Shown here piece by piece: positions 38,019-56,535 of a DNA stretch of 64,000 nt. Made by a program: the position numbers and the translations under genes. Numbering within the stretch: the stretch's first letter is position 1; each line of letters starts with the position of its first letter. This DNA is from Desulfamplus sp. Lineage in GTDB: Bacteria; Desulfobacterota; Desulfobacteria; Desulfobacterales; Desulfobacteraceae. The notes beneath the pieces are model-generated. The model saw nothing but the letters and a program-made list of their open reading frames with translations. It searched no databases and had not been told where the DNA came from. The stretch is taken from the NCBI GenBank assembly GCA_015232455.1, contig JADFZQ010000002.1:124001-188000 (forward strand), in the 5' to 3' direction.

Positions 38019-38906
38019 TTAAAAGTGAGCAATAACTATTTTAATATGCTCAATCCAAATATTCACAAAATCTTCAAATTCAGCGGTTCCTTTTAAAATT
38101 GGCTCGCATTTTATACCAGCTTTAGTTAAAATTGATTTCCAAGAATCTTCTTCATCTCCAGCCATATCATTTTTTGCATGATCTCCAGCAACAGACATAA
38201 ATGGCATAAGGTATGCTTTTTTTATTTTTGACTTTAGCATCAGTGATTTAATATCTTCAATTCCAGGATAACCTTCAACAGTTCCCACAAAGATATTTGG
38301 GTCTTTAAGCTGAATCTGAAACATGAGAGCTGCATAAAAAGCATTTGCAGGGTGTGGAGTGCCATGACCCATAAGCACAACCGCCTCTCCAGTTTTTCTA
38401 TCCTTTGGGGTATTTTTCAAGATTGCATCAACAACTTTGACCATATCTTCTTGAGTTGACATCATTGGATAGCCTAAAATAACCTTTTCAAATCCTCCCA
38501 TCTGGTTAAAAGCTCCAACTATTTTTCTTAAATCGTGGTACTCTTCGCCAGCAATTGTATGAAGACTTTGAACCGCAACATGGGTAAAACCTTCTGCTCT
38601 CATTTTTGCCAATGCAACCTCTGGAGCATCAAGAATTTTACCCTGCTTTGCAAGTTTGTTTCTGATTATGTGCGATGTGTAAGCCCAATAAACTGGAACA
38701 TCAGGAAACGCAGCTTTTGTCTTTTTATCAATATTATCAAAAGATATTTGGGCACTCTCCTCACTCGATCCAAATGCCACAAGCAAAATTCCTTTTTTCA
38801 CTTCTCGTTTCTCTCCATGAGTTGCATTAGCAAAATTTGAAATGAGCAAAAGAGAGAGCATTGCAATAGTAAAGATAACACTTTTTTTAATCATACTGCC
38901 TTTCAT
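38019..38906 (-). CDS. cbiK: Exported sirohydrochlorin cobaltochelatase, CbiK(P)-type
   Basis: The 295-residue protein has a signal peptide (KKSVIFTIAMLSLLLISNFANA), followed by the CbiK fold: KKGILLVAFGSSEESAQISF, HVAVQSLHTIAGEEYHDL, MGHGTPHPANAFYAAL and FMSVAGDHAKNDMAGDEEDSW. The two histidines in GHGT and AGDHA are the expected metal-site residues. CbiK inserts Co2+ into sirohydrochlorin in anaerobic cobalamin synthesis. Desulfovibrio vulgaris is known to have a cytoplasmic and a periplasmic form, the latter haem-binding; the same pair occurs here, the cytoplasmic type being just upstream at 39010. AGGAG lies 8 bases before the ATG. The periplasmic role is not settled. Confidence 0.92.
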   Translation of the reverse strand: MKGSMIKKSVIFTIAMLSLLLISNFANATHGEKREVKKGILLVAFGSSEESAQISFDNIDKKTKAAFPDVPVYWAYTSHIIRNKLAKQGKILDAPEVALAKMRAEGFTHVAVQSLHTIAGEEYHDLRKIVGAFNQMGGFEKVILGYPMMSTQEDMVKVVDAILKNTPKDRKTGEAVVLMGHGTPHPANAFYAALMFQIQLKDPNIFVGTVEGYPGIEDIKSLMLKSKIKKAYLMPFMSVAGDHAKNDMAGDEEDSWKSILTKAGIKCEPILKGTAEFEDFVNIWIEHIKIVIAHF

Positions 38907-38951
38907 TTTTAATTCTCCTTAAATCTGTTTTATTATTGTTTTTATACCAAA

Positions 38952-38979
38952 GTAAAGAAGCACAGATGTGCGACTCTAC
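38952..38979. repeat. GTAGAGACGCAC palindromic repeat, copy 4 (degenerate)
   Basis: GTAAAGAAGCACA and TGTGCGACTCTAC form an imperfect palindrome in the gap between the two cbiK genes. Several mismatches suggest an old copy. Confidence 0.5.
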
Positions 38980-39009
38980 AGATTCACATTTTTAACCTAC
39001 TATTTTCAT

Positions 39010-39912
39010 CTATTTATGAATTATTGAAAATGCCTCTTGAATATGCTCCATAAATATATCAATAACTGAATCTTGATACCCAATTCCCTGCTGTTCAATC
39101 TCTACGCTCAATCCAGCATCTTCAAAAGCTGATTTCCATGAATCTTCGCTGCCTGCAATATCTTCTTTAAAATGCACTCCAGCAACCAGCGTAAATGGCA
39201 CAAGATAGACCTTTTTTGCTCCAGATTTTATCACAGCTTCAATAATCTCTGGCTGCTCTGGCTCTCCTTCAATCAGCCCCATAAATATTTTGTTCTGGTA
39301 TGATGGATTTTGATTCAAAGAATAATCAATATTGTGTTTTACATAAAAAACATTTAAATGGTTTCTCATAATAGACTCAAACGCCAAATACGATGACCAT
39401 GAAGGGTGATCAGTTCCATGCCCCACAAACACTACAGCCTCTTCTTCTGAAATGTGGCTTTTGTATTTAGAAATCATTGAATCTGCTAAAGAGGTGTAAT
39501 CAGAATAGGAGGTAAGAAGGGGTAGCCCTATACTTGTTCTTATCGGTATAGTTTTTGCCTCATCAACAAGACGATAAAGTTCATGTGCGTTGATAATATG
39601 AAGCGACTGAACCACTGCCCATGAATGACCTTGTTCATAAAGCTCTTGTAAAACTTCTGTCGGACTTTGGATATTTATTAGATAATTGCTGTTTGAGCTA
39701 TCTATCGATTTACTATTGATGTTTTCCATTGAGTGTTTCGCACCATGTTTACAAGAACGCTTATTTGAATGTTCCTTGACCATACGTGAAGAGAATGCCC
39801 AGCGTATCTCATGGTCAGCAAATCGAGATTTAAAACGTTGATTCATATAAGCGTAAGTCTTTTGTGCATGGGTAGTTGTGCCAAACGCGACTATTACAAT
39901 CGGAGTGGTCAT
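39010..39912 (-). CDS. cbiK: Cytoplasmic sirohydrochlorin cobaltochelatase, CbiK(C)-type
   Basis: The 300-residue CbiK paralogue has no signal peptide: the fold starts directly with TPIVIVAFGTTTHAQKTY. Metal-site motifs are VFVGHGTDHPSWSSYLAF and TLVAGVHFKEDIAGSEDSW. A Lys/Ser/Asn-rich insertion at about residues 47-85 (KRSCKHGAKHSMENINSKS region) is absent from the exported copy. It would insert cobalt into sirohydrochlorin in the cytoplasm, the entry to the anaerobic corrin pathway to which cbiG and cbiH belong. It is separated from the CobN-like gene by a hairpin-rich gap, so it may have its own promoter. Confidence 0.92.
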   Translation of the reverse strand: MTTPIVIVAFGTTTHAQKTYAYMNQRFKSRFADHEIRWAFSSRMVKEHSNKRSCKHGAKHSMENINSKSIDSSNSNYLINIQSPTEVLQELYEQGHSWAVVQSLHIINAHELYRLVDEAKTIPIRTSIGLPLLTSYSDYTSLADSMISKYKSHISEEEAVVFVGHGTDHPSWSSYLAFESIMRNHLNVFYVKHNIDYSLNQNPSYQNKIFMGLIEGEPEQPEIIEAVIKSGAKKVYLVPFTLVAGVHFKEDIAGSEDSWKSAFEDAGLSVEIEQQGIGYQDSVIDIFMEHIQEAFSIIHK

Positions 39913-39934
39913 AATTCAGAATCCTTTCTTTATA

Positions 39935-40080
39935 TTAGCCCAGAGATAAAGCTCAGGGCTAATTTGATAAAAGCTGGCTAAAGCCAGCTTTTAAATACCG
40001 TTTTAACTTATAAAACTATAACAGCCCTCTTTAGAGGGCTTCATTAAATCTTTAGCCGTGTGATTTATCGCTCGGCTACA
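39935..40080. repeat. Cluster of intergenic hairpins between cbiK and cobN-like genes
   Basis: Three strong hairpins lie in a row: TTAGCCC/GGGCTAA arms (39935-39941 and 39956-39962), a perfect 10-bp stem AAAGCTGGCT/AGCCAGCTTT (39970-39991), and AGCCCTCT/AGAGGGCT (40023-40040). On the minus strand the last two are followed by T-rich DNA and probably terminate the CobN-like transcript. The first two recur at 20322-20377. A 27-base stretch at 40068-40094 recurs at 620-646 with two differences. Confidence 0.65.
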
Positions 40081-40084
40081 AAAA

Positions 40085-43000
40085 TTATGATAATCTCTCT
40101 TTTCTATAAATTTTGTTTGTCTGAGTTCCAATGACAAAAAGGGCGATGAGCGTTAGAACAAAAAAAGATGCAAACCACTGAACACCTGATGTTGCAACCT
40201 GACTCTTTTTATCTTCTGATTTTATCTCTTCCATTTTATACCCCTCTACAATTTCAGGTGCATTCTCAGATTTTTGTGCAGATTTACTGGGGTCATTATT
40301 TTTCTTTGATTCAGAGGAGTTATCAGATTGAGGTATTTTCTCTAACTCTGGAATTAAGTCTGGCTTAACAACCGTTTTTGACAGCTTTTCAAGAAGCTCT
40401 TTTCTATCTATAACTTGCTTATCTATTGCAGCACCAGTTGCCTGTTCGATTGCAATTTTGAATTTCTCTACAATTTCAGGAGATAAAACACCCGGAATTG
40501 AGATAATGTTCACCACCATCTGATTTAGCACAGGATTATTACAGGTATGATCGCAGCAGGCAACTCCCTTTTCCACAATATTCAACGCATATTCAGCAGC
40601 AAGTTTTTTTGTGATTTTATCATCAGCGTTCCAATATTCCTTGCGAACAGCCTCAAGCATTCTTGCTGTCATTGATTGATATGCCCAAGGGTTTTCTTTG
40701 TTGAAAAACTCTTTTATATCAAGTCCATATTTATCCTCCACATAGACTTCGTATGTCTGCTCCCACTTTTTGCTATCAACAGCTTCTGGAGTTGTAACCT
40801 GCCAGCCCCACATATTTTCCATAAATTCTGCCATATCTCTTGCCCCTGCATAAGACTCTTTTTTCATACCCTCTATCCATTTGGGATTAAGATAGCGGGA
40901 ACGAAGCTCTTTTCCCAAAGTAGTGCCGATAGACTCAATATGACCATTACCTTTATCTCTCTGCATTGAGACAAACACATCAGGCTCTTTTCCAGAGGCT
41001 TTTCTTACTGCCATTGAAAGCCCGCCTAAATATTGAAACATATCGTCATTATCCATTGTGCCGTAAAGATTTGACGATATTGTGTGAACTGTGGCATCAA
41101 CCTTTTTAAGGTGCTGGCGATACACTGGTGTTGCCTTTTCTCCCCACATATCAGAAGAGTAGCCAAATGACTGCATCTGGACAAATCCCTGTTCAGCAAC
41201 AATATCATCTTTTTCCCACAATCCGCTTGCTCCTGCCATGTCATCAACTTTTGTGCCGTAAGCTCCGGGCGGGGCACTAAAAAGTCTGACTAAAGAGAGC
41301 TTTTTTGCATCTTCTTTGGTGTGTCCCTCTTTTAAGAGAGACTCTTCAAGTGCTAACGAATGTTTACGTAAAAAATTTTCAACATCTGTTAATGCTGATG
41401 CCTGCTTTACAGCCTTGTCTAACAGCAGGGCAACTGTTGGAAATGTGTCTCTAAAAAGCCCTGACATCTGCAAAAGAACATCAATGCGTGGGCGGTTCAG
41501 CTCTGCACCTGCAATCGGCACAAAATTTTTAATCTTATCCCGATGATCCCAAACTGGCTGCATTCCCATCAAATATAGTGCAGTTGCAACGTTTATTCCT
41601 TCATCTCTGATAGTTTCCACTGACCAGAGAATAACTCCAACCTGTTCTGGATATTTACCGTCATGCTTTTTCTGATAGCTCTCAATTATCTCCAAACCTG
41701 CTTTTTTTCCATTTTCCCAAGCCTCTTTTGATGGTGTCTTTTCAGGGTCAAAGCCGTAAAAGTTCTTGCCTGTTGGAAGACTCTCTGGATTTCTGATTGG
41801 GTCGTTTCCAGAAGCTGATGGAACGTATCCACCTGAAAGCCCGTTTATTAGACTCTCCATTTCTGACGGACCGCAGGCTGAAAGCTGCTGTTTATAAAAC
41901 TGTGCTGTTTTATCTTCTTGTTTATCACCAGTATGTTGCCCCTCTTTCTTTATATCCAACGGGAACAGAATCTTTTTCTGCATCACATCAGATGATTGCA
42001 CAACTCCATTTCTGTCTGCAATTGCATTTGCTGTTTCAATCAGCCCTTCACCAGACGGAGAGACTCCAAAAGTGTGCAGACCATAAGGCACCATTTGAGT
42101 TTTCAGGGTCAAAAGATAATGTTCAATTTTCTCTAAATCATCTTCTTTTATGGAATATTTTGTTTTGGCTGTCTCTGATGATACATGGTTTTTATCTGTG
42201 TTTTTTTTCTCTGCAACTCTTTTATCTGAAAATTCCAAATCCTTATCAAGACCAAGATTTACAACCATCTCTCCAATTCTTTCCAATTTTGAAGAGCGTA
42301 TTTTATCAGAACCTGATGACTCATATTCGCTGATAAGTGCTGCAAGCTGAGAATATTCCCCATAAGCTCCACCCTCTTTAAACGGCGGAACAGCATGGTC
42401 AATAACAACTCCCCTGCCCCGTCGTTTTGCCTGAATCCCCTCACCTACATCATCAACAATATATGGATAAAGGCTTGGTATATCTCCAATCAAAACCTCT
42501 GGCGGACATTTCCATGTGAGTCCTGCCTCTTTTCCGGGAAGCCATTCATGTGTTCCGTGTGTTCCAAGACTTATCATTGCATCTGGCTTAATCTGGTTTT
42601 GCAGCCACAAATAGAATGCAGCATACTGATGATGAGGCTGAAGAACAGTGCTGTGATAGAGCTTGTCAGGGTCATCGCTCCACCCTCTGACAGGCTGGGG
42701 AACAAGCATCAGATTACCAAGACGAACGCATGGAATAACAAATCTGCCATCTTTTACCATCACCTTGCTATCCTCTGGTTTGCCCCAATCTTTTTCAACT
42801 GCTGCCTGAAATTCTTGCGGAGTCTTTGATAGCCAATCTTTGTAATCTTGCATATCAATAAAAGCTGCGTTGCCCTGTGCAATCAGCTCATCAAGCTCTC
42901 CGGGTGCCCATGAGCCGATATTTCTGCCTGATTTTAAAAGAAGGTCTTTGATTTTTTCTTCTGTCAATTCTCTTTCTCTATTGCTGTTTTTATCTCTATT

Positions 43001-44647: not shown

Positions 44648-44660
44648 AAGATTTTATACC

Positions 44661-46874
44661 CTATTTTGCCAATTTTGCCTGCACCCCTGTAAAAATAGCA
44701 TTTAACGCGGTTTTCAACACAAATGAGATTTCGTTATCTGTAATTATATCTTTTATGGTTACAATATCTTCGCCAGCTATATCAGAGGCAATTTTGCATG
44801 ACCATTTTTGAAATGACTCAATATCTCTAATCTGACCTCTTTCATAAGCATCGCTGATTGAAAAAGCTGCTTCCATGTATCCGCTCCAACGGCTGTCAAG
44901 AAGCGTCTTTTCAACTTCGCCTGCAAGAACGCTTTTTGAAAATGAACATTGGCAGTCTGCTGAAGATGCTAATTCGTAAATTGAGATTTTTCTCTCCTTA
45001 AGCCTTTGAAAAACATCTCTTACAGGTACAAAACCATTATGTTTAAGTATTGCATCTTTAACCCCAGCATAAACAGCAGAGGCTATCAATTCGCCAGTTT
45101 TGGCATGACCGCTTGTATTTTCGATAATATCTGCATCTAAAAATTCAGGGTCTTGATTCTCTGAAGTCAGATTTGCAGAAGTATTATTTTTTAAATTACC
45201 ATTACCTTCTGTCGAGGAGACAGTTCCCTGGACAACAAGAATGTTGTCTGTGCCTGTTCCTGTAGCTGGATTAGCTGATGATGTATAACTGCTTCTAATG
45301 TCCATATCCCATAAAGCTGCTGTTTTTGCCTCAGTCGCTGTTATGATTGCACGGCTCATTGCAGAGGGCGTTAATAGTTTATTTGTCAGAATTAAAATAT
45401 TTATTGTGCCAGGTTTACTCTGTTTATCTTGTTTCTGTTTCATAACAGAGGAAGCAGTTGAGGATTTTCTAAATTTTGCAGATTTCCAGTCAGGTTCATA
45501 AAAATCACCACTGTCTTTGGACATTCTTTGAGCATTTGACTCAACTCCTGCTGTAACAAGTGCTGTAACTTCAATTTCTTTGAACTTTGCCTGTCTGATT
45601 ACTAAATTATCCATGTCAGCCCCTGTAAAAAGCAGACTTGCACTCTCTTGGCTCAACCCAACTACATCAAACACCTTTTTTCTAAAGAGTTTAAGACCTT
45701 TTTTATGGTCAATATTCCAGCTTGGCGGAGGTGAATAGTGGTTGCCGACAGTCGTTATATTGCTTCGCTGCCCTTCAAGTGTCGAAAAGATGGTTTGGGG
45801 ATTCGTAAAGTTTATTAAAAGTGATTTGTTGGTAAAATCGTAAATATTGCTGTAAGCAATCACAGCATTTTTAACGTAAGGTAGATTAATATCAACGGTT
45901 TTTGTAGAGATAATGCTCTCTGGCTGCACAGTATTGATTGATTCTCCAAACTCATCAGCATAGATGGTTCCTGCAAGCCATGATATAAAGTAACCTGTAT
46001 GTGTTGAAGCTCTGCATGTAAGGTCGCACGGGAAAAAGTATATCTGCCTTTTTTGCACTGCTTCTACATCTTTCCATTCAGGTTTGCTGAAAAAAGCCTC
46101 AGCCGTCTCTCTATCCTGACCACAACCGTATATCACTTGAGGGTTAAATTTCTGCCACTCCTCTTTTGAAATAGAGATAATATCACCTGTTTTTCCAAAT
46201 TTTGGAGCTATTCCTCCTGCTGCTTCTATCATCTTATTTTGAAAAGAGTCATCACCTGGAGACATAATTGTATCCCGCCCCATAAGCCTTATTACCCGTT
46301 TTCTTTTTTCAATAGGTATTTTAGAGACTTTCTGCTTTATGATTTCAATCTGCTTTTCGTTGCTCTTTATAATTTCTTCAGCTTTTTCTTTACAATCAAA
46401 TATCTCTCCTAAAAGCCTGAGATTAGCAGCATAATCAGCCATTTTAACTGTATCCATAACCACTATCTGACAGGGGCTTTTACAAATACGTTTTAAAGCA
46501 CAAATATCTTCAGGCAATTTTGAACTACCAGAAGATTTAAGTTGGCTTGAAGCGGCAATTAAAAGGTCTGGCTGAAGTTCTTTTATAATCTTAAAACTTG
46601 GCGAAAAATAACCTCCGACAATCTTCTTGCCATCAACACCTGAAAGCCGTGAATCGTGATATGTTATACCAACTAAAGAGTTCTGAGAATCAAGTGAACA
46701 AATCATCTCAGTAACAGATGGTATAAGGCTAACTACTGCTGTCGGCTTTTTGCTTATTGTGAAGCTGTTTCCTGCAAAATCTTTGAATTTAACAGGATAA
46801 GATGCAGCGTGTGATGATGTTATTAAAGCGAATAACATAAACAATATGGAAAAAGAGATAATTATTCTTCTCAT
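44661..46874 (-). CDS. BtuF-like corrinoid-binding protein fused to CbiZ amidohydrolase
   Basis: After a signal peptide (about 1-23) comes a class III periplasmic-binding domain (VVSLIPSVTEMICSLDSQNSL, LVGITYHDSR, ELQPDLLIAAS, WKDVEAVQKRQIYFFP) at about 30-310, as in BtuF. The second half (about 330-705) is CbiZ-like: ALVTAGVESNAQRM, INILILTNKLLTPSAMSRAI, TATEAKTAALWDMDIRSSY, ATGTGTDNILVVQG and HAKTGELIASAVYAGVKDAI. CbiZ cleaves the nucleotide or aminopropanol side of adenosyl-corrinoids to cobyric acid, allowing salvage. In this fusion the amidohydrolase would act in the periplasm on captured corrinoid. Long Ser/Lys-rich linkers lie within the CbiZ half. No BtuC/BtuD genes are present in the window, so the inner-membrane step is unexplained. 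Confidence 0.88.
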   Translation of the reverse strand: MRRIIISFSILFMLFALITSSHAASYPVKFKDFAGNSFTISKKPTAVVSLIPSVTEMICSLDSQNSLVGITYHDSRLSGVDGKKIVGGYFSPSFKIIKELQPDLLIAASSQLKSSGSSKLPEDICALKRICKSPCQIVVMDTVKMADYAANLRLLGEIFDCKEKAEEIIKSNEKQIEIIKQKVSKIPIEKRKRVIRLMGRDTIMSPGDDSFQNKMIEAAGGIAPKFGKTGDIISISKEEWQKFNPQVIYGCGQDRETAEAFFSKPEWKDVEAVQKRQIYFFPCDLTCRASTHTGYFISWLAGTIYADEFGESINTVQPESIISTKTVDINLPYVKNAVIAYSNIYDFTNKSLLINFTNPQTIFSTLEGQRSNITTVGNHYSPPPSWNIDHKKGLKLFRKKVFDVVGLSQESASLLFTGADMDNLVIRQAKFKEIEVTALVTAGVESNAQRMSKDSGDFYEPDWKSAKFRKSSTASSVMKQKQDKQSKPGTINILILTNKLLTPSAMSRAIITATEAKTAALWDMDIRSSYTSSANPATGTGTDNILVVQGTVSSTEGNGNLKNNTSANLTSENQDPEFLDADIIENTSGHAKTGELIASAVYAGVKDAILKHNGFVPVRDVFQRLKERKISIYELASSADCQCSFSKSVLAGEVEKTLLDSRWSGYMEAAFSISDAYERGQIRDIESFQKWSCKIASDIAGEDIVTIKDIITDNEISFVLKTALNAIFTGVQAKLAK

Positions 46875-46905
46875 TACTATGGTTTCCTTGTAACTGATAT
46901 ATCAT

Positions 46906-46933
46906 GTAGAGACAGAAGTCCGTGCGTCTCTAC
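46906..46933. repeat. GTAGAGACGCAC palindromic repeat, copy 5
   Basis: GTAGAGACAGAAGT then CCGTGCGTCTCTAC; the outer 8 bp pair fully while the centre is imperfect. It lies between the TonB-receptor stop and the BtuF-CbiZ start, inside the presumed operon. Confidence 0.65.
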
Positions 46934-46986
46934 AGCTTGGATTAAATCTAAAAAGGCTACACTCAAATCAAAAATTACTGCTTTAT

Positions 46987-49008: not shown

Positions 49009-49058
49009 AATAAATAACCTTTTTATTTTATAAAAAATTAATAAACACTCTTACCAAA

Positions 49059-49502: not shown

Positions 49503-49515
49503 ATTCATCTCTCCT

Positions 49516-49962
49516 CTATTGCCTTTCAGTAAGAACATTAAAATTATGAGAACCTGATAATTTGACTTTATCAATAACTCTAACAAGAAGCCCGACAGAG
49601 ACATCTTTGTCAGCCCTTATATTTACAGGGACATCAGGCGACCATTCAGGCATCTGCCTAATCTCATCTGCAACTGCCTCAACTCCAATCTCTTTTTTCT
49701 GGATAAAAACCATTCCATCACTTACTGCTCCACCATTATCGGCATTACTGTAACTGCCTCTTTTACCTGCAATGGTTATAGTTATCTGACGGTTATCTGC
49801 TTGAGAATCTGTTGTTTCAGACTTTGGCAGACGAATCATGATTGCCTGCTCCATTGCCATATTAAAGGTGAGCATAAAAAAGAGAAGAAGCAGAAAAACA
49901 ACATCAACAAGCGGTGCTATATCAATATAATTCTGCCGTTTTCTTCTCCTTTCAATCTCCAT
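49516..49962 (-). CDS. exbD: Biopolymer transport protein ExbD
   Basis: The 148-residue protein has a short basic cytoplasmic N-terminus, one membrane helix with the essential aspartate (NYIDIAPLVDVVFLLLLFFML) and a periplasmic domain (VNIRADKDVSVGLLVRVIDKVKLSG). The insertion near residues 68-85 (GKRGSYSNADNGGAVSDG) is unusual. With ExbB it forms the proton-driven motor that energises TonB. The start overlaps the exbB stop by 11 bases. Confidence 0.93.
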   Translation of the reverse strand: MEIERRRKRQNYIDIAPLVDVVFLLLLFFMLTFNMAMEQAIMIRLPKSETTDSQADNRQITITIAGKRGSYSNADNGGAVSDGMVFIQKKEIGVEAVADEIRQMPEWSPDVPVNIRADKDVSVGLLVRVIDKVKLSGSHNFNVLTERQ

Positions 49963-50572
49963 TATGCCTCCGTGCTTCTATCTGACTATAGAGTGTTGAA
50001 GCATTTTCGTGGTTGATGGTGGATGATGCCGCATTACATTCCTTCTGCTGCAAAGCAAAAATTGCACTCTCTTTGGCAATAAGAGCAATTTCATCAACCT
50101 GATTTTCAAGGAAATGGCATACAACGTGCGTTGGAATTGCTACAAACAGACCAGCGGCTGTAGTGATAAGTGCTTCCCATATTCCGCCTGCAAGCATTCC
50201 CGGGTTGATTTGGGTCTGGCTAAGAGCAATAATCTGAAATGATTTTATCATACCAGTTACCGTCCCAGTCAGACCCAAAAGAGGAGATATAACTGCAACC
50301 AGGGCAAGAAATCCAAGCCCTTTTTCTATCAAGCGAATTTGATGAGTAGCAATAAAGCCCACCTCTTTTTCTGTTTTGCCTGCATTAACAGCATCAAAAA
50401 TAGGAGCCAGATATGAGGGATTTTTCTTGATAATCATCTCTATTTCGCATGAAAGCTCTTTTAAAACTCCTTGAAATTGAAAGCCTTTTTTCAAAGAGAT
50501 TGTAATTGATAGAAACGAACACAGCAAAATGGGCCACATTAGTGGACCGCCTTTTAAAAACATATCAAACAT
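49952..50572 (-). CDS. exbB: Biopolymer transport protein ExbB
   Basis: This 206-residue MotA/TolQ/ExbB protein has three membrane segments: GPLMWPILLCSFLSITISL near the N-terminus, GLGFLALVAVISPLLGLTGTVTGMI in the middle, and WEALITTAAGLFVAIPTHVVCHFLE near the C-terminus. These include the conserved glycine/threonine-rich channel motifs. It forms the proton channel with ExbD for TonB. It lies between tonB and exbD. Confidence 0.93.
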   Translation of the reverse strand: MFDMFLKGGPLMWPILLCSFLSITISLKKGFQFQGVLKELSCEIEMIIKKNPSYLAPIFDAVNAGKTEKEVGFIATHQIRLIEKGLGFLALVAVISPLLGLTGTVTGMIKSFQIIALSQTQINPGMLAGGIWEALITTAAGLFVAIPTHVVCHFLENQVDEIALIAKESAIFALQQKECNAASSTINHENASTLYSQIEARRHNGD

Positions 50573-50613
50573 TACTATTTTATTCCTTTTAATTTTAGGC
50601 TCTTTAGCATTAT

Positions 50614-50640
50614 GTGGAGACGCACAGCCGTGTGTCTCTA
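50614..50640. repeat. GTAGAGACGCAC palindromic repeat, copy 6
   Basis: GTGGAGACGCACA and CGTGTGTCTCTA form an imperfect palindrome between the tonB stop and exbB start, again inside the presumed operon. Confidence 0.62.
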
Positions 50641-50651
50641 ATTGCTTACTC

Positions 50652-51677
50652 TTAAGAGTTCAATTTAAATTGAATCTTTATTAAGGCAACACAGCCTACA
50701 GGGTTGCCATTTTGAACAGCAGGTGAAAATTTAGAGTGTTTTACCGCCCGAACAGCCTCTTCATCAAATCCCCTTCCAGCACCTTTTACAACTTCCACTT
50801 TAATTAATGTTCCAGAGGCATCTATCAAGAGTTTAAGAGTTACCTCTCCTTCAATGCCAAGCCTTTGGGCAACTTTTGGATATTTGGGCATAACCCGTCT
50901 GGCAAATTTGGGTCCACCCAATGCACCAAATTCTGCGGCTACAGGAGATAGCGGATTAGACATTTTATCTGCTTTAACCTCTGTGCTACTTGTATTGCTT
51001 ATACGTTTATTGTTTATAGCCGATAGATTTTCCTTGTTTAGAGAAACCGCTGCCTGAATATTTTCCGTTGCAGGTGCTGGTACTTTTTGCTTAACAACTG
51101 GTTGAACTATCTTTTCAGGAGGTTTTACAGGATTTCTCTTTTTTTCCGGCTGTTTTACCTTCTCTTTTTTTACAACCTGCTGAATCTTTTTTTTAGGTGC
51201 TGCCTGCTTCTTTTTTGGAGGATCAATTTTTTTGACTGGCTCAGGTTCAGGTAGCTTTACAATCTCAACACTCTCTGGCAGCAGTTCAGGTTCTGGTCGT
51301 TTTACTTCTTCAATAAGCTCTGGCAGCAGTTCAGGCTCTGGTTGTTTTACTTCCTCAATAAGCTTTGGCGGTGGCTCAAGCTCTGGTGCTTTTAGCTTCT
51401 CAATAGGTTCAGTCTCTTTTAGCTCCTCCACTATAGGCTTTGGTTGAGGCAATGGCGGCGGTGGAGACGGCGGTTCTTTGGCAGCTTCTGACCGCGTTGC
51501 TTTCTCAACAGGTGCAGATGCTGCCTGAGCCTCACACGTTAGAGCAGGCTTTTCCAGAACCAATAACTTTATTATATCTTTATCAGGCTCTTTTGGCATT
51601 TGTAGCACTGCTGGCTGAATAAAAAACACCAGTCCATGAAATGCCGCAGAAAACAATGCACACTGCCAAGTTTTCAT
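50652..51677 (-). CDS. tonB: TonB energy-transducing protein
   Basis: The 341-residue protein has an N-terminal membrane anchor (WQCALFSAAFHGLVFFIQPA). A long Pro/Glu/Lys-rich rod (about residues 60-225) contains near-tandem units around PELIEEVKRPEPELLPE. The C-terminal TonB domain starts ARRVMPKYPKVAQRLGIEGE and runs VTLKLLIDASGTLIKVEV to the end. It spans the periplasm to energise the two TonB-dependent receptors encoded on either side. The direct repeats in the rod region may vary in number between strains. Confidence 0.93.
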   Translation of the reverse strand: MKTWQCALFSAAFHGLVFFIQPAVLQMPKEPDKDIIKLLVLEKPALTCEAQAASAPVEKATRSEAAKEPPSPPPPLPQPKPIVEELKETEPIEKLKAPELEPPPKLIEEVKQPEPELLPELIEEVKRPEPELLPESVEIVKLPEPEPVKKIDPPKKKQAAPKKKIQQVVKKEKVKQPEKKRNPVKPPEKIVQPVVKQKVPAPATENIQAAVSLNKENLSAINNKRISNTSSTEVKADKMSNPLSPVAAEFGALGGPKFARRVMPKYPKVAQRLGIEGEVTLKLLIDASGTLIKVEVVKGAGRGFDEEAVRAVKHSKFSPAVQNGNPVGCVALIKIQFKLNS

Positions 51678-51720
51678 AAAAAAAGCCTTTTACCTTTATA
51701 GAAAATAGAAAGATAAAAAA

Positions 51721-53658
51721 TCAGAAAGCAATTTCATACCCCACCTTAAAAAGCCTTCCTAAATCCTCATAAACATAGAGATTTGATGCTCCTTCGCTCA
51801 AATCTCCAGTAACCTGCACATCTTCATCAAAGATATTATCAACTCCAAAGGTTACATAGCCTCTCCATGCTTTCACTTTGCCGTAAAAGTTGAGAGCAGC
51901 ATAACTGTCAAGATTTCTCTCTCTTGATGTCAGTATCTGGCAGTTCAAATCAAGGACAAGCGGTTCTGTAAGATATGAAAAGCCAACGCTGTTCTGCAAT
52001 TTTGGACCAGATTGATACTCAACTCCGCTTGTATCTTCTGCTGTAGGGTCAGCCCAATATCCAGCCGTGTAGAGCAGAATATCTTGCTGCCAGCCGCTTT
52101 GATTAGTAAAAGGAGAAATTCCAAACTCCCACTCCACTCCTGTTGAGGCATAATCTCCTGCATTAAAATAGGTTTGAGGATAACCTCTGCGGTCAATTTC
52201 TATTTTCTCGCTATATGCCATGTGAAATAGTGCAAAACGAACTCGTAATATATCAGTATCATATTTAGCACCTGTCTCATAAGTCCAGCCTTCTTCTGGT
52301 TTTAAATCAGGATTTCCAACCATAAATGAGCTTTCATAGTAGAGGTTGTTAAATGTTGGGGCACGAAACGCTTTGCCTGTGTTTGCAAAAATATTGAGCT
52401 GTTCATTTATCTTATAGGTCAATCCTAAACTTGGAAGAAAACGGTCATAATCAGGAGTTCCAGTTTCTCCATAAATAACCTGCTCTCTGAAGCCTGCCGT
52501 TGCTGTTAGACGTTCTCCAAAAGTATTTTTAATCTCCATAAAGAGTGCAGCATCATTTCTGTGGTGTTCCTGATACTGATTTGAGTAATCTACACCTCGA
52601 TGAATAAGGCTTGCTCCAGTTGTAAATCTCCAGTCTGAAATATTAAATTTGTAATCTCCTTCAATACCTGCGTTAAAATTGCGGTTATCATCATCTGGTG
52701 TTTTAGCTGTGTATTGAGAGCGGCGCATGATGTCATAATTGCCAAATATTTTTGTTCTAAAATCTGCTGTCTCATACCTGACATCTGCAAAGTGTTTGAG
52801 CTGGTCTTGGTCTGTTCCCTCATAAGCCTTTTTTGGGTCATCAAAAATTTTTCTAAAACCAGTTTTGTTAAAAGAGGCAAGATAGTCAAAGTAGAGATTA
52901 TCAAACATATTTGCATTGAGGTTTAGAGAATATCTCTCTGTAGGATCAGTTGCGTAACGGTATTTATTTGTATAGCTTCGGGAAATCTCTTCCTGTTCTC
53001 CAAGATGCTGATAGTTTGCTCCAATATTGACACCAGGACATGATGCTGAAATTGTGTGGTTCTGATACGACTCTGAACCAGCTTCAGTAGATATTTTTAC
53101 AGATTTTGCTTTATCAGTATCATCAACGACAGAAGAGTCATCACTCTTGACACTCTTTTTCTTTGTTTTTTTTGTGATGATATTGATAACACCAGACATT
53201 GCATTTGCTCCATATATTGTTGAAGCAGCACCTTTTAGAACTTCAATTCGTTCAATCTGTTCAACTGGAATGGTGTTAAGATCATACGCATGACCTGCTG
53301 AACCTTGAATTGGAACACCATTTATAAGGATCAGCTCTCCATCTTTAACTCCGCGAATAGAGAGAGTGCTGTTCATTCCTCCATGACTTGTGCCTAAAGG
53401 TCCATAAGCCTTGTAAGCAAACCCGCCAGAACGCTTTAAAGCATCAACAACATTGACAGCACCGCTCTCTTTCAGCTCTTCAGATGTGATTACTGTAATA
53501 AATCTTGAACTCTCCTTTTCTTGAACAGGAAAACGCTCTGCTGTTACAGTCAAAGTTTCAAGGGTTGTAGTGGCTCTATTCTCATCTTCAGCTTCAGCAT
53601 TTGAGACCATTATTAGAAAGCATATTGCAATTTTAAGGATATTTATCCATCTGTTCAT
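51721..53658 (-). CDS. TonB-dependent outer-membrane receptor, BtuB-like
   Basis: This receptor has about 645 residues. The signal peptide is MNRWINILKIAICFLIMVSN, cleaved near AEA. A TonB-box-like ETLTVTAERFPV precedes the plug (VVDALKRSGGF, GELILINGVPIQGSAGHAYD, QIERIEVLKGAASTIYGANA, MSGVINIITKK). The barrel contains NTGKAFRAPTFNNLYYES and NPDLKPEEGWTYETG and ends in a terminal Phe (FKVGYEIAF). The best guess is a cobalamin/corrinoid receptor because it lies between cobO and tonB under a cobalamin riboswitch. ATG 53658 is used (AAGGAA upstream); the longer frame from 53730 overlaps cobO. Confidence 0.9.
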   Translation of the reverse strand: MNRWINILKIAICFLIMVSNAEAEDENRATTTLETLTVTAERFPVQEKESSRFITVITSEELKESGAVNVVDALKRSGGFAYKAYGPLGTSHGGMNSTLSIRGVKDGELILINGVPIQGSAGHAYDLNTIPVEQIERIEVLKGAASTIYGANAMSGVINIITKKTKKKSVKSDDSSVVDDTDKAKSVKISTEAGSESYQNHTISASCPGVNIGANYQHLGEQEEISRSYTNKYRYATDPTERYSLNLNANMFDNLYFDYLASFNKTGFRKIFDDPKKAYEGTDQDQLKHFADVRYETADFRTKIFGNYDIMRRSQYTAKTPDDDNRNFNAGIEGDYKFNISDWRFTTGASLIHRGVDYSNQYQEHHRNDAALFMEIKNTFGERLTATAGFREQVIYGETGTPDYDRFLPSLGLTYKINEQLNIFANTGKAFRAPTFNNLYYESSFMVGNPDLKPEEGWTYETGAKYDTDILRVRFALFHMAYSEKIEIDRRGYPQTYFNAGDYASTGVEWEFGISPFTNQSGWQQDILLYTAGYWADPTAEDTSGVEYQSGPKLQNSVGFSYLTEPLVLDLNCQILTSRERNLDSYAALNFYGKVKAWRGYVTFGVDNIFDEDVQVTGDLSEGASNLYVYEDLGRLFKVGYEIAF

Positions 53659-53695
53659 TTTACGATTCCTTATATTTAACCTAAAGTTATGTTGA

Positions 53696-54217
53696 CTAAA
53701 ATTCGATGCCTTTTTGTGCCGTAACACCAAAATGGTAAGGGTGCTTTATCTCCTGCATTTCTGTTACCAAATCGGCTGACTCTATAAGTTTTTTGGGAGC
53801 ATATCGCCCTGTTATAACTACGTGGAGGTTTTCTCTTCTTGTTTTGATACAATCAATAACTGCATCTATTTCTATAAACCCTAATGTCATCAGGTAGGTC
53901 AGTTCGTCCAAAATAACCATAAAATATTTCTCAGAATTGAGCTGCTCTTTTGCCAATTCCCACCCTTTAATTGCTGCTATTCTGCTATTTTCCATATTTT
54001 CTGGTTCAAAGACAAAACCATTGCCAACATTAAAAACATCCAGCATATCAATGTATCTTTCAGAAGAGATAATTTCTCCATAAGTTGATTTATTTTTAAT
54101 AAATTGAATAAGACATACCTTTTCCTTGTGTCCCATAGCTCTGAAAGCAAGCCCCAATGCTGCGGTTGTCTTGCCTTTTCCATTACCAGTATTTAAGATT
54201 ACTAAACCTTTACCCAT
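53696..54217 (-). CDS. cobO: Cob(I)yrinic acid a,c-diamide adenosyltransferase
   Basis: The 173-residue protein is of the CobA/CobO/BtuR type and transfers the 5'-deoxyadenosyl group of ATP to reduced corrinoids. The P-loop is NTGNGKGKTTAALGLAFRA. The rest matches the family: VCLIQFIKNKSTYGE, YFMVILDELTYLMTLGFI, HVVITGRYAPKKLIESADLV and the terminal EIKHPYHFGVTAQKGIEF. In the cluster it would adenosylate imported or salvaged corrinoids in the cytoplasm. It is 18 bases downstream of the DUF2149 gene. Confidence 0.95.
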   Translation of the reverse strand: MGKGLVILNTGNGKGKTTAALGLAFRAMGHKEKVCLIQFIKNKSTYGEIISSERYIDMLDVFNVGNGFVFEPENMENSRIAAIKGWELAKEQLNSEKYFMVILDELTYLMTLGFIEIDAVIDCIKTRRENLHVVITGRYAPKKLIESADLVTEMQEIKHPYHFGVTAQKGIEF

Positions 54218-54235
54218 ATCAAATATCCTGTTGTT

Positions 54236-54598
54236 TTATTCAGGCACATAAACCATTGAACCATCTTCAAGGCGATAGGCAACGCCAAGTCTTGTTCCTT
54301 CACCTTTGGCACTCTCTTTAGTAACTTTTACTGCACTTATCTTTTTTCCATCTTTTTTTATAATCTCAAGCTGACCATCTTCAGCCTGTTTCATTATTGT
54401 AAATTTGCTATCTTCACTGAACATATCTTGCAGTCTATATGCTGAAAAAAGAGTCAAAATAAGCCCCACAATAAATACCAATCCAACATCAAAAAGATTT
54501 GCAACTCCGTTAATTGGGTCTTCATCTGTAAAGGGCTGTTCTCCATACGCCTTTGTCAATCCTTTAGTAGTGATTCTTCTTTTATTGAAATATCTCAT
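54236..54598 (-). CDS. DUF2149 membrane protein (ExbD-like position)
   Basis: This 120-residue protein has one membrane helix (NLFDVGLVFIVGLILTLFSAY) preceded by the conserved EDPINGVANLFDVG. The C-terminal domain lies outside the membrane and is lysine/glutamate-rich. The one-helix layout with an acidic residue just before or inside the helix resembles ExbD/TolR. It overlaps the ExbB-like gene by four bases (ATGA), so the two probably form a motor complex. In Bacteroidota haem-uptake loci a DUF2149 gene follows an ExbB-like gene in the same way (recalled knowledge). Its precise role is unknown. Confidence 0.85.
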   Translation of the reverse strand: MRYFNKRRITTKGLTKAYGEQPFTDEDPINGVANLFDVGLVFIVGLILTLFSAYRLQDMFSEDSKFTIMKQAEDGQLEIIKKDGKKISAVKVTKESAKGEGTRLGVAYRLEDGSMVYVPE

Positions 54599-55260
54599 GG
54601 CATTCGGTCTCCCTGTTCCATCAAAGCTGATTCCCTTACTGTCAGTTCAGAGATTATCAGCTCTGTAGCAAGCTCCATATTTTTTATATCTTCTTGAATC
54701 CAGCGGTTTTTAACAGTGTAGATGCAGTAAGCTGTCATGCCTATGGCAAGACCTACAACAGTAGTAGTAAATGCAATTACAAGATCAGAAGAGAGGCGTG
54801 CCATATCTCCTGTCCCCAAAGATGCTAAACCAGTACCCATAGGAATGAGGGTTCCCATCAAACCAAGAGAAGGTCCCAAGCGGACCATAATGCGGAGTCT
54901 GTCCATTGATTTGAACCAGCTAATCGTTGATTCCTGAACAAGATTTTCAACTTGTATATTTTGCGTATTTTGATCTTCAGAAATGTGTTTTTGATTATTA
55001 AGAATATCTCTGAGGGTAACTATGTAGTTTTTAACGCGGTGCGGCAAAGCATCTGCACTGTTTTTGCTGACAATTACAGAAGGAAGCTCTCCAGCAGAAC
55101 AGTGTTTTAGTCTGGCTCTCTCAAGCCACTCGGCACAAAATGACCCTGCATAGATAACTGTAAAGATAAATCCAGCAACCAAAAAAAAGAGTGTAGGATA
55201 CAGCAGTGAAGAGGAAATAAGGTAAATTGTAGTGCTTAGAATTGAACCAATGTTGAGCAT
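54595..55260 (-). CDS. MotA/TolQ/ExbB proton channel family protein
   Basis: The 221-residue protein has an N-terminal helix (YPTLFFLVAGFIFTVIYAGS), a cytoplasmic loop of about 90 residues, then the channel motif MVRLGPSLGLMGTLIPMGTG and LVIAFTTTVVGLAIGMTAYC. It is a divergent ExbB-like protein, distinct from the ExbB at 49952. Together with the DUF2149 and DUF2162 genes it probably forms a second proton-driven complex in the inner membrane. Which transport step it energises is not known. It lies 65 bases downstream of the DUF2162 gene. Confidence 0.88.
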   Translation of the reverse strand: MLNIGSILSTTIYLISSSLLYPTLFFLVAGFIFTVIYAGSFCAEWLERARLKHCSAGELPSVIVSKNSADALPHRVKNYIVTLRDILNNQKHISEDQNTQNIQVENLVQESTISWFKSMDRLRIMVRLGPSLGLMGTLIPMGTGLASLGTGDMARLSSDLVIAFTTTVVGLAIGMTAYCIYTVKNRWIQEDIKNMELATELIISELTVRESALMEQGDRMP

Positions 55261-55325
55261 AAGATTCTCCGTTTTGTATTTTTTATATATGTTAGTCTCT
55301 CTACTTTTTAATTTCTAAAATAAAT

Positions 55326-56120
55326 CTATTTATTAATGTTAGACATATAGCGTATGATTCTTTCTTGCATATAAAGATAACCAGCTAGAAAAAGTGAGCC
55401 AGCCGTTGCAATAACAAGCGTCAATAGTATTAAATTTAGACTGTTATCTTGGTTCGTGTAGCTATTTGAGGCAATGCTGTAAATCTCATCAAGCCCTGAA
55501 AATTGAGGCATGATTATTATTGAAAGCAGAAAGTAGGCAGAAATTGCGGTCATGGCATAACCAAGAAGCAATTCTGGAGAGATGTTAAGCCTTGCTTCTA
55601 ATCTGCCCATAAAAACAGCAGTCAGAAAACTTAGAGTTAAAAAGAGTATGTAAAATATTGATACTGAAAAGAGAGCTATGTCAGGAAAGAGAGCTAAAAG
55701 AAAAGCTGTAGAGACTCCAATTACAGTCATGCAGACAGGACAAGGAACGACTAATAAAAGCCAGCTTGGACTAAGTTGTGTAAGTTGATTTTCTGCTATT
55801 AAGGGTTTTGAGAGTTTTTTATTGAATTTTAAAAGATAAATTCCCCAAAACATAAGCATAGCTGCAAACAGAAAATGGATAACCATTCCTCCTTGAACAA
55901 ATTGCTGGATATTTTCTATATTTGCCATAATATCAATTTTACCAACTGCGGCAGCAATTGAATAAAATAGAACCGCATAAACGGCTGCAAACGCTGCCCA
56001 GCCCAAGAGTGCAGCTCTATTACCTTTTTGTTTAAGACGATAGTTCATTCCTAATCCAGCTTTAAAACTAAATATGCCGACAGAAAACAGAATCCCAAGA
56101 AACAGACTTTTTAACTCCAT
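55326..56120 (-). CDS. DUF2162-family putative transporter
   Basis: The 264-residue membrane protein has seven to eight predicted helices. The central motif SWLLLVVPCPVCMTVIGVSTA, with two cysteines in the membrane, is characteristic of the DUF2162 family; the N-terminal KAGLGMNYRLKQKGNRAALL is a conserved cytoplasmic loop. Family members cluster with corrinoid or haem uptake genes, so metal or tetrapyrrole transport is plausible. It is the first gene after the cobalamin riboswitch and terminator (56247-56535), so its expression should fall when cobalamin is plentiful. AGGAG lies 8 bases before the ATG. Confidence 0.85.
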   Translation of the reverse strand: MELKSLFLGILFSVGIFSFKAGLGMNYRLKQKGNRAALLGWAAFAAVYAVLFYSIAAAVGKIDIMANIENIQQFVQGGMVIHFLFAAMLMFWGIYLLKFNKKLSKPLIAENQLTQLSPSWLLLVVPCPVCMTVIGVSTAFLLALFPDIALFSVSIFYILFLTLSFLTAVFMGRLEARLNISPELLLGYAMTAISAYFLLSIIIMPQFSGLDEIYSIASNSYTNQDNSLNLILLTLVIATAGSLFLAGYLYMQERIIRYMSNINK

Positions 56121-56246
56121 AAGGTTTTCTCCTTTTTTCCCCTTTTAAACATCTTTGTTGTTACTAAGTTGTCAATTTTATATTTATTGCTGAAATAATC
56201 CTAAGGACTTTTTGTTGAGGCAGATTTCGCTGGCTGCAAAAACAAA

Positions 56247-56281
56247 AATCCCCGAATCGAAAACTACTCGATTCGGGGATT
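56247..56281 (-). terminator. Intrinsic terminator of the riboswitch
   Basis: A perfect 14-bp stem AATCCCCGAATCGA / TCGATTCGGGGATT with a 7-base loop is followed on the minus strand by TTTTGTTTTT. It lies between the cobalamin aptamer and the DUF2162 gene, so it is the expression platform: ligand binding should favour it and stop transcription. On the plus strand it is followed by CCCTTTTTT and may also terminate there. Confidence 0.93.
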
Positions 56282-56338
56282 CCCTTTTTTATCCATCGAA
56301 TGAAATGCACGTCAGCTTTGTCCGTAAGCTAAAATAAT

Positions 56339-56535
56339 GTGCTTTATGCTCAGGCAGGTCTTCTGACTTCTGGATCACTCTACTTGCAGCGTCTTCCCAA
56401 CCTAAAAACAACAGGTCAGTGACTTAAATGCTGCGTTCGTCCCCAATTACAGCGGCGGGCCCGTCTCCGATTCTCACGGAGTTCCCTATTATCTTTAGAA
56501 AAAGCGAGAATAAAAAACCGCATCTTCTAAAGCAC
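56339..56535 (-). ncRNA. Cobalamin (B12) riboswitch aptamer
   Basis: Read on the minus strand, the closing helix P1 pairs GTGCTTTA (56528-56535) with TAAAGCAC (56339-56346). Between them are the conserved aptamer parts: TAATAGGGAACTCCGTGAGA and ATCGGAGACGGGCCCGCCGC with TGTAATTGGGGACGA, AAGTCACTGACCTG, TTGGGAAGACGC, and the 3' core GTCAGAAGACCTGCCTGAGC. All are hallmarks of the cobalamin riboswitch. An intrinsic terminator follows. It controls the corrinoid uptake cluster running down to about 40085 or beyond. Its promoter should lie in 56536-56660, after the transketolase stop. Confidence 0.96.

What the first reader, a model, noticed from the sequence alone, without database searches (positions are those of the whole stretch)
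38019..56535. One riboswitch-headed cluster joins corrinoid import, CbiZ remodelling, CobN-like chelatase and CbiK
Fourteen minus-strand genes follow a cobalamin riboswitch and terminator: DUF2162, ExbB-like, DUF2149, CobO, BtuB-like receptor, TonB, ExbB, ExbD, DUF4019, second receptor, BtuF-CbiZ, CobN-like, and two CbiK genes. The set receptor + CobN-like + DUF2162 + ExbB-like + DUF2149 mirrors the Bacteroidota hmuRSTUV haem locus, but here it is under cobalamin control and linked to corrinoid enzymes. This points to a periplasmic corrinoid or tetrapyrrole processing pathway rather than simple B12 import. No BtuCD permease is present.
Basis: partly seen in the sequence, partly recalled or inferred. 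Interest (0 to 1): 0.75.

Follow-up and report, generated by a model that had tools for sequence, protein, structure and literature searches.

The report
Periplasmic vitamin B12 salvage gene cluster
A B12-sensing RNA switch heads fourteen genes that look like a machine for capturing B12-like molecules, cutting them and handling their metal outside the cytoplasm; it is a widespread but largely uncharacterised relative of the system gut bacteria use to take iron from heme.

Summary

The core (receptor, ExbB-like, DUF2149, exported CobN-like, often DUF2162) recurs in Desulfobacterota and anammox planctomycetes, and without receptor in archaea. Of 65 non-duplicate bacterial loci of the window's type, 47 have a cobalamin riboswitch upstream.

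The CobN-like protein is not HmuS. It has CobN's Asp/Gln (D1202/Q1205) where HmuS has His1209/Glu1212, and lacks His254 and the Met-rich insert. DUF2162 is not HmuT. BtuF-CbiZ has a signal peptide and is the genome's only CbiZ. A BtuCD-like pair exists under another riboswitch.

Best reading: cobamide-repressed periplasmic corrinoid salvage with a CobN-type metal-handling enzyme. Bolder reading: ExbB-like/DUF2149 is a proton-driven substitute for CobN's AAA+ motor. AAA+ genes lie near 1 of 79 exported, pair-linked proteins, but also near 0 of 5 full-length cytosolic ones. Substrate and reaction are unproven. Riboswitch-headed Hmu-like operons were already noted in Bacteroides (PMC10100974, passages).

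The parts
56336..56554 (-). Cobalamin riboswitch aptamer (RF00174)
   Evidence: 112.2 bits, E 2.7e-27, positions 1-189 of 189; also found by own model R1, which was built with it
56244..56284 (-). Intrinsic terminator of the riboswitch, 18-pair stem followed by a T run
   Evidence: leader fold z = -4.92, 0 of 200 shuffles as stable
55326..56120 (-). DUF2162 membrane protein with an invariant PCPxC motif
   Evidence: PF09930, 117.9 bits; P126, C127, P128, C130 invariant in 19 sequences
54595..55260 (-). ExbB-like protein, partner of DUF2149
   Evidence: PF01618, 43.6 bits; aligned with 18 homologues
54236..54598 (-). DUF2149, one predicted transmembrane helix with invariant N34 and D37, then a predicted beta domain
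   Evidence: PF09919, 108.3 bits; invariant in 50 sequences; model of moderate confidence, pLDDT 75 and pTM 0.38
53696..54217 (-). CobO/BtuR corrinoid adenosyltransferase (no signal peptide seen)
   Evidence: PF02572, 207.1 bits; TIGR00708 185.3 bits over its cut-off 167.75
51721..53730 (-). TonB-dependent receptor 1 (likely start near 53658)
   Evidence: PF00593 and PF07715; best NCBIfam model TonB-B12 140.9 bits, below its cut-off 599.7
50652..51677 (-). TonB
   Evidence: PF03544, 73.9 bits
49952..50572 (-). ExbB of the TonB complex
   Evidence: PF01618, 89.6 bits
49516..49962 (-). ExbD of the TonB complex
   Evidence: PF02472, 99.3 bits
49059..49604 (-). DUF4019 protein (likely start near 49508, with a signal-like N terminus)
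   Evidence: PF13211, 134.4 bits
46987..49008 (-). TonB-dependent receptor 2
   Evidence: PF00593 and PF07715; TonB-hemin 195.7 and TonB-B12 195.4 bits, both below cut-off
44661..46874 (-). Exported BtuF-CbiZ fusion (binding protein plus adenosylcobinamide amidohydrolase)
   Evidence: PF01497 77.8 and PF01955 158.7 bits; signal peptide visible in the sequence; only CbiZ found in the genome
40085..44647 (-). Exported, membrane-anchored CobN-like chelatase, 1520 aa
   Evidence: PF02514 1022 bits; hydrophobic N and C termini; H697, D1202, Q1205; only CobN-family gene found in the genome
39010..39912 (-). CbiK2, cobaltochelatase without signal peptide
   Evidence: PF06180 173.1 bits; alignments to 2xvx and 1qgo
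38019..38906 (-). CbiK1, exported CbiK, like 2xvx and heme-binding FetB
   Evidence: PF06180 256.4 bits; 2xvx 269 bits, 9b86 FetB 202 bits

Best explanation
A cobamide-repressed operon for salvaging corrinoids, and perhaps cobalt tetrapyrroles generally, in the periplasm. When adenosylcobalamin is low the riboswitch lets transcription pass the terminator (inferred from the known mechanism of this RNA class). Two TonB-driven receptors bring corrinoids into the periplasm. BtuF binds them and the fused CbiZ cuts the nucleotide-loop amide to give cobyric acid. The inner-membrane-anchored CobN-like enzyme handles the central metal, perhaps releasing cobalt from tetrapyrroles that cannot be used (release against insertion is about even). 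ExbB-like/DUF2149 may energise it, and DUF2162 may pass metal or electrons through its CPxC motif. BtuCD, encoded elsewhere, takes cobyric acid inward; CobO adenosylates it and CbiK2 uses cobalt for new synthesis; CbiB and CobT rebuild a cobamide. Shown: the genes, export signals in sequence, riboswitch, linkage across genomes and residue identities. Inferred: substrate, reaction, energy coupling and the role of DUF2162.
For: Riboswitch with terminator. In 65 non-duplicate bacterial loci with an Asp-type CobN-like gene and an ExbB-like/DUF2149 neighbour, 47 have a riboswitch upstream on the same strand within 12 kb, and 30 have a BtuF-CbiZ fusion nearby. The fusion passes a crude export test in 33 of 35 homologues. 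At HmuS His1209/Glu1212 the window has Asp1202/Gln1205, as in the CobN structures 9uk9 and 7c6o. Of 84 Asp-type proteins of 1150-1599 aa, 0 have His at the HmuS His254 column. Two cytosolic CobN genes also sit with CbiZ behind riboswitches (L076, L078), so CobN and CbiZ pair in both compartments. The genome has CbiD, CbiB, CobT (the phosphoribosyltransferase) and a riboswitch-headed BtuCD-like pair for finishing the cobamide.
Against: No substrate or activity is tested. The receptors score low against both B12 and heme models, receptor 2 equally. The exported CbiK1 is close to a heme-binding protein, FetB. 8 of 65 loci have at least 6 kb upstream and no riboswitch. A Prevotellaceae locus with HmuS-type His/Glu residues also has a riboswitch (L137). 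In the 115-row alignment Asp is at the His1209 column in 90 rows but Gln at the Glu1212 column in only 69 of these, with Met in 13. ChlH residues at this place were not examined. Removing cobalt from an intact corrin is chemically very hard (recalled). Characterised CbiZ enzymes work in the cytosol on adenosylated substrates (recalled).
Confidence: 0.5

Rival explanations
1. A heme or iron-porphyrin harvesting system. It works as Hmu does, removing iron in the periplasm, and has only come under a cobalamin riboswitch.
For: Overall the CobN-like protein is closer to HmuS than to CobN (453.5 against 407.8 bits). An ExbB-like protein and DUF2149 are shared with the HmuS-type locus L140. CbiK1 resembles heme-binding FetB. 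Receptor 2 scores 195.7 bits against the hemin model.
Against: HmuS signature residues are missing. 47 of 65 loci are riboswitch-headed. CbiZ and CobO have no known role in heme use.
Confidence: 0.15
2. A plain corrinoid uptake and remodelling locus in which the CobN-like protein only binds or hands over corrinoids across the periplasm and does no metal chemistry.
For: Receptors, BtuF, CbiZ and CobO suffice for uptake and remodelling. CobT of the CobNST motor is absent from the genome and ChlD does not reach its cut-off. A BtuCD-like pair is available.
Against: The superfamily histidine (H697 in a GTH motif) and the Asp are kept in most Asp-type proteins. A 1500-aa enzyme kept with its own ExbB-like/DUF2149 pair in bacteria and archaea is much for a carrier.
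Confidence: 0.2
3. A cobalt-insertion system. The exported CobN-like protein and CbiK1 insert cobalt into metal-free corrinoids or sirohydrochlorin captured outside the cell.
For: The metal-site residues are those of the cobalt-inserting CobN. Both CbiK proteins align over the regions with the two histidines of the C-terminal half. A similar idea is in print for chelatase genes beside a B12 receptor in Chlorobaculum tepidum (as cited in PMC8620254, passages).
Against: Metal-free corrinoids are rare (recalled). Insertion by class I chelatases uses ATP-driven AAA+ partners (PMC7689651, section seen), which are not expected in the periplasm.
Confidence: 0.15

Closest known systems
Hmu heme system with de-chelatase HmuS (Bacteroides thetaiotaomicron, PDB 9d26; PMC12583661)
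   Same: Exported CobN-family protein anchored at both ends, ExbB-like protein, DUF2149 at the place of HmuV, and a TonB-dependent receptor in one operon; catalytic His538 equivalent kept as H697.
   Different: His1209/Glu1212 replaced by Asp/Gln; no His254 equivalent; no Met-rich insert found; DUF2162 instead of HmuT; no HmuY family match among the 14 genes; cobalamin riboswitch; CbiZ, CobO and CbiK in the cluster.
Riboswitch-headed Hmu-like operons of Bacteroides (PMC10100974) and the BtuS type of CobN homologue (Rodionov 2003, known to me only through PMC6460266)
   Same: Hmu-like gene set behind a cobalamin riboswitch; same proposal of a role in cobalamin rather than heme.
   Different: Prevotellaceae loci fetched here (L131, L137, L141) have His/Glu residues and no DUF2162 or BtuF-CbiZ was detected in them; a riboswitch was found in L137 only. 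The window type has Asp/Gln residues and occurs in other phyla.
Cytosolic CobN cobaltochelatase with CobST or ChlID motor
   Same: Same chelatase family and same Asp/Gln residues at the metal site.
   Different: Window protein is exported and membrane anchored; no CobT and no ChlD over cut-off in the genome; ExbB-like/DUF2149 genes nearby instead.
CbiZ adenosylcobinamide amidohydrolase
   Same: Pfam CbiZ domain, 158.7 bits.
   Different: Fused to BtuF and carried on a signal peptide, so predicted periplasmic.
Periplasmic CbiK (CbiKP) of Desulfovibrio vulgaris, PDB 2xvx (identity of 2xvx recalled)
   Same: CbiK1 is exported and aligns over nearly its whole length (269 bits).
   Different: Here it lies at the end of a riboswitch-headed salvage cluster.

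Membership tests
HmuS heme de-chelatase | CobN/ChlH family protein, N-terminal signal or anchor and C-terminal membrane helix | tested here: met
   PF02514 1022 bits; hydrophobic stretches at both ends by hydropathy only
HmuS heme de-chelatase | LSLDHxxEFMGG motif with His1209 and Glu1212 | tested here: not met
   Window has TMDNDDMFQYLGG; D1202 and Q1205 at those places
HmuS heme de-chelatase | Heme ligands Met79 and His254 | tested here: not met
   Met116 aligns with Met79, Phe353 with His254; 69 of 84 Asp-type proteins keep Met, 0 of 84 have His (the 84 include the window, four duplicate contigs and two cytosolic proteins); N-terminal alignment is less certain; columns checked against 9d26
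HmuS heme de-chelatase | Methionine-rich insertion | tested here: not met
   Scan for 14 or more Met in 120 aa flags L140 (22), L094 and L112 (14 each), not the window
HmuS heme de-chelatase | Removes iron from heme | not testable with these tools
   needs purified protein
CobN cobaltochelatase subunit | TIGR02257 at or above cut-off 822 bits | tested here: not met
   579.3 bits; two cytosolic relatives reach 960 and 975
CobN cobaltochelatase subunit | Partner ATPase subunits CobS/CobT or ChlI/ChlD in the genome | tested here: not met
   CobT none; ChlD best 48.9 bits against 499.55; CobS and ChlI models not run
CobN cobaltochelatase subunit | Asp/Gln at the metal site as in PDB 9uk9 and 7c6o | tested here: met
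BtuS (Rodionov 2003) | Third CobN-related group, apart from CobN and ChlH | tested here: inconclusive
   82 Asp-type and 2 Methanoculleus proteins fall apart from 11 HmuS-type and cytosolic ones (support 93, quick tree, SH-aLRT only, midpoint root, long-branch warnings); the original definition was not available
Cobalamin riboswitch RF00174 | Score over gathering threshold | tested here: met
   112.2 bits against 31.5
CbiZ | PF01955 over cut-off | tested here: met
   158.7 bits against 27
ExbD (for DUF2149) | ExbD profile or fold similarity | tested here: inconclusive
   hhalign probability under 2; model has a helix and a beta domain, no PDB match at E 0.001; N34 and D37 invariant in 50 of 50; PMC10100974 calls HmuV ExbD-like, PMC13227078 says no homology to a known family (passages)
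HmuT (for DUF2162) | Sequence similarity to the membrane protein of HmuS-type loci | tested here: not met
   L140 and L137 proteins have no DUF2162 match at E 0.1; hhalign probability 3.7 for L140; that these proteins are HmuT rests on their place

The most novel reading that the evidence does not exclude
The ExbB-like/DUF2149 pair is a proton-motive-force motor that drives a class I (CobN-type) chelatase in the periplasm, in place of the ATP-driven AAA+ motor of cytosolic CobN and ChlH. The riboswitch-headed clade uses it to move cobalt in or out of corrinoids, with DUF2162 as the CPxC metal or electron conduit. HmuU/HmuV would then power HmuS rather than, or as well as, the heme receptor.
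Probability: 0.27. Interest if true: 0.85.

Novelty: new variant of a known kind. Interest (0 to 1): 0.6.

Why it matters
If right, corrinoids are cut and have their metal handled before they reach the cytosol, in free-living sulfate reducers and anammox bacteria, and the chelatase core is used in archaea too. That would give a function to part of the CobN-like sequences which the HmuS authors say cannot be reliably annotated (PMC12583661, section seen), suggest why hmuS travels with hmuU/hmuV, and make the energy source of a class I chelatase testable outside ATP. It also warns against annotating such genes as cobaltochelatase CobN or as heme uptake.

Tried and rejected
DUF2162 as a known transporter fold: Foldseek gave no match at E 0.001 and VIA-align Z stayed under 8 with unrelated helical transporters; left open. 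DUF2149 as an ExbD fold: not supported. DUF2162 as HmuT: not supported.

The clean rule 'His/Glu means heme, Asp/Gln means cobalamin': rejected as a strict rule, because the Prevotellaceae locus L137 has His/Glu and a riboswitch, and 8 of 65 Asp-type loci with at least 6 kb of room have no riboswitch (L053, L070, L073, L082, L095, L097, L117, L142).

'AAA+ genes mark the cytosolic enzymes': weak as a contrast. AAA+ genes were found near the two split cytosolic CobN pairs (L079, L080) and L100 only; the five full-length CobN-like proteins without C-terminal helix and without pair genes (L074-L078) have none nearby either.

Receptor specificity from NCBIfam: inconclusive. The ThiC-like gene beside CobT under the third riboswitch (L004) may be BzaF or plain ThiC: the ThiC models NF009895 and TIGR00190 are over their cut-off and the BzaB-like model is not.

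Literature: searches. In their listings and the passages I opened I found no description of an exported BtuF-CbiZ fusion or of this gene set in Desulfobacterota. The library lacks most subscription journals. Gray 2008, Gray 2009 and Romao 2011 were asked for and are not held; Rodionov 2003 was not looked up and is known to me from citing papers. PMC545781 (passages) describes B12 elements in delta-proteobacteria; CobN and BtuB have 0 occurrences in its main text. PMC10846266 (passages) reports BtuS proteins of Methanosarcina barkeri changing with the iron source, which fits an iron role in archaea and is against a purely cobalt role there.

Four duplicate contigs and the window itself were not counted. 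12 loci without a CobN-like ORF of 400 aa were dropped. ORFs were called mechanically, so neighbours are undercounted in high-GC loci. Export was judged by hydropathy only; the test is loose (it also passes 12 of 24 CbiK proteins, some without a visible signal, and its pass for L066 comes from a start in the neighbouring gene). The 16 riboswitches used to build R1 come from the window and the first set of loci; RF00174 is independent but its list was cut.

Full report
WHAT IS THERE. The window carries one cobalamin riboswitch at gathering threshold, RF00174 at 56554-56336 on the minus strand (112.2 bits), just behind a transketolase-like ORF. A strong terminator follows at 56284-56244, and the leader folds much more stably than shuffles (z = -4.92). 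Fourteen minus-strand genes follow down to 38019: DUF2162, ExbB-like, DUF2149, CobO, receptor, TonB, ExbB, ExbD, DUF4019, receptor, BtuF-CbiZ, CobN-like, CbiK2 and CbiK1. Twelve of 13 junctions overlap or have gaps of 112 bp or less. The gap before CbiK2 is 172 bp and holds a weak hairpin, so the last two genes could be transcribed apart. A zinc-uptake cluster (ZnuA onward) begins 218 bp further on.

GENOME CONTEXT. The genome (98.5% complete, unnamed) has three cobalamin riboswitches. One heads a BtuC-like and a BtuD-like gene (L005). One heads a ThiC/BzaF-like gene and CobT (L004). One is this cluster. A second FecCD-type permease lies elsewhere. CbiD and CbiB are present. The CobN-like gene, the CbiZ and the two CbiK genes of this cluster are the only ones of their families found in the genome. 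CobT of the CobNST chelatase is absent and ChlD does not reach its cut-off. So the cell may make cobamides by the anaerobic route (only CbiD, CbiB and CbiK were tested) and rebuild salvaged ones, and its only CobN-family protein is the exported one.

RECURRENCE. A search of 297 genomes of the phylum with the CobN-like protein matched 87. DUF2149 reached E 0.001 in 38 and the curated cut-off in 34 of the same 297; of 14 control genomes only the archaeon Methanosarcina acetivorans matched. With the 39 stretches that surround CobN-like hits, and four duplicate contigs dropped, 115 loci remained. Twelve had no CobN-like ORF of 400 aa. The other 103 held 107 CobN-like entries: 70 with Asp at the HmuS His1209 column and an ExbB-like or DUF2149 neighbour, 8 with His, and 29 others (cytosolic, partial, or without such neighbours). 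Of the 70, 65 are bacterial and 5 archaeal. In the 65, a riboswitch lies upstream on the same strand within 12 kb in 47. Of the 18 misses, 10 have under 6 kb of upstream sequence and 8 have more. DUF2162 was found near 42 of 65, BtuF-CbiZ near 30, CbiK near 16 and a receptor near 51; these are probably undercounts because ORFs were called mechanically.

THE CHELATASE. The CobN-like protein begins and ends with hydrophobic stretches, as do its close relatives. Overall it is closer to HmuS (453.5 bits) than to CobN (407.8 bits). But at the metal site it has Asp1202 and Gln1205 where HmuS has His1209 and Glu1212, and the CobN structures 9uk9 and 7c6o also have Asp and Gln. In an alignment of 115 rows (three of them PDB fragments) Asp stands at this column in 90; with it, Gln stands at the second column in 69 and Met in 13. 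The shared histidine of the superfamily is kept (H697). At the other heme site of HmuS, Met79 aligns with Met116 and His254 with Phe353; among 84 Asp-type proteins of 1150-1599 aa Met is kept in 69 and His in none (columns verified). No Met-rich insert was found in the window protein. In a quick tree, 82 Asp-type and two Methanoculleus proteins fall on one side of a branch, 11 HmuS-type and cytosolic proteins on the other (support 93, SH-aLRT only; two of the 11 are Asp-type cytosolic CobN). So this looks like a distinct class: an Hmu-like exported scaffold with CobN-like metal-site residues. A counter-example to any simple rule is the Prevotellaceae locus L137, with His/Glu and a riboswitch.

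THE POSSIBLE MOTOR. Cytosolic class I chelatases use AAA+ partners and ATP (PMC7689651, section 38 seen). Two genomes show the contrast. G101 and G037 each have an exported copy beside ExbB-like, DUF2149 and DUF2162 genes (L052, L043), and a split cytosolic CobN near AAA+ genes of the cobaltochelatase type and BtuCD-like genes (L079, L080). Among 89 CobN-like proteins of at least 1100 aa with a C-terminal hydrophobic helix, 79 have an ExbB-like or DUF2149 gene within 12 kb, and 1 of these 79 also has an AAA+ gene of that type nearby (L100). Against this, the five full-length proteins without such a helix and without the pair (L074-L078) have no AAA+ gene nearby either, so the absence near exported ones is weak evidence. 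In archaeal loci (for example L096, L119, L124, L125, L144), DUF2162, ExbB-like and DUF2149 genes adjoin the CobN-like gene with no receptor or TonB detected. Archaea lack the outer membrane that TonB-type motors serve (established knowledge), so in them the pair must do something else. PMC10100974 (passages) assigns HmuU and HmuV to powering the receptor. The window also has a separate TonB-ExbB-ExbD set. All this fits a proton-driven motor for the chelatase, but it is an inference. DUF2149 could not be shown to be an ExbD by profile or fold; only its invariant transmembrane Asn and Asp (50 of 50) recall one. DUF2162 has an invariant PCPxC motif and no recognised fold.

CBIZ AND CBIK. The BtuF-CbiZ fusion has a clear signal peptide in the sequence, and 33 of 35 homologous fusions pass a crude export test. 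That would put the amidohydrolase in the periplasm. CbiK1 is exported and close to 2xvx and to heme-binding FetB, so a heme role for part of the cluster cannot be excluded. CbiK2 has no signal and is the genome's only other CbiK.

COMPARISON WITH PRINT. HmuS as heme de-chelatase: PMC12583661 (introduction, HmuS body and chelatase superfamily sections and passages seen). Riboswitch-headed Hmu-like operons in Bacteroides: PMC10100974 (passages). BtuS1/BtuS2 in B. fragilis: PMC6460266 (passages). P. gingivalis HmuS: PMC13227078 (passages). So the kind of operon is known, and its cobalamin role has been suggested. What I did not find in the held library (searches listed under Tried and rejected) is the exported BtuF-CbiZ fusion, the CobN-like residues of this clade, riboswitch counts beyond Bacteroidota, or the motor-swap idea.

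VERDICT. Real and not chance; a new variant of a known kind. Cobalamin control is close to certain (about 0.9). That the CobN-like protein acts on corrinoids or cobalt tetrapyrroles I put at 0.6, that ExbB-like/DUF2149 drives it at 0.3, and the direction (release against insertion) near even.

Noticed in passing
window 9506-12091 (-): One 861-aa ORF joins a PALP (cysteine synthase-like) domain to cysteinyl-tRNA synthetase: a possible fusion of cysteine making and charging.
   Followed up: no
window 21735-29498 (+): Type III CRISPR genes (Cmr2/Cas10 and a RAMP protein) with a CorA-like protein upstream, which recalls type III-B systems with a CorA membrane effector (comparison recalled; domains).
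   Followed up: no
window 33732-37800 (-): Downstream of the cluster: ZnuA, an ABC ATPase, an ABC-3 permease, a Fur-family regulator and an ArsP-type permease on the same strand.
   Followed up: partly
L137 223-10354 (Prevotellaceae): Riboswitch-headed locus whose CobN-like protein has HmuS-type His/Glu but Arg and Met at the two heme-ligand columns (shared with L131 and L141), next to a CbiK with a signal-like N terminus: possibly a third class.
   Followed up: partly
L096 and L144 (Methanoculleus): CobN-like proteins in the archaeal DUF2162-ExbB-DUF2149 operon lack the GTH and DD..Q motifs in the alignment; they may be inactive or do something else.
   Followed up: no
L083, L084, L087, L089, L092 (anammox and related planctomycetes): Two cobalamin riboswitches in a row precede the receptor, CobN-like, ExbB-like, DUF2149 set, and DUF2162 is not detected. 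L090 is alike but gave one riboswitch hit.
   Followed up: no
L076 and L078: Riboswitch-headed cytosolic CobN genes next to a radical SAM protein and CbiZ; the radical SAM partner is unexplained.
   Followed up: no
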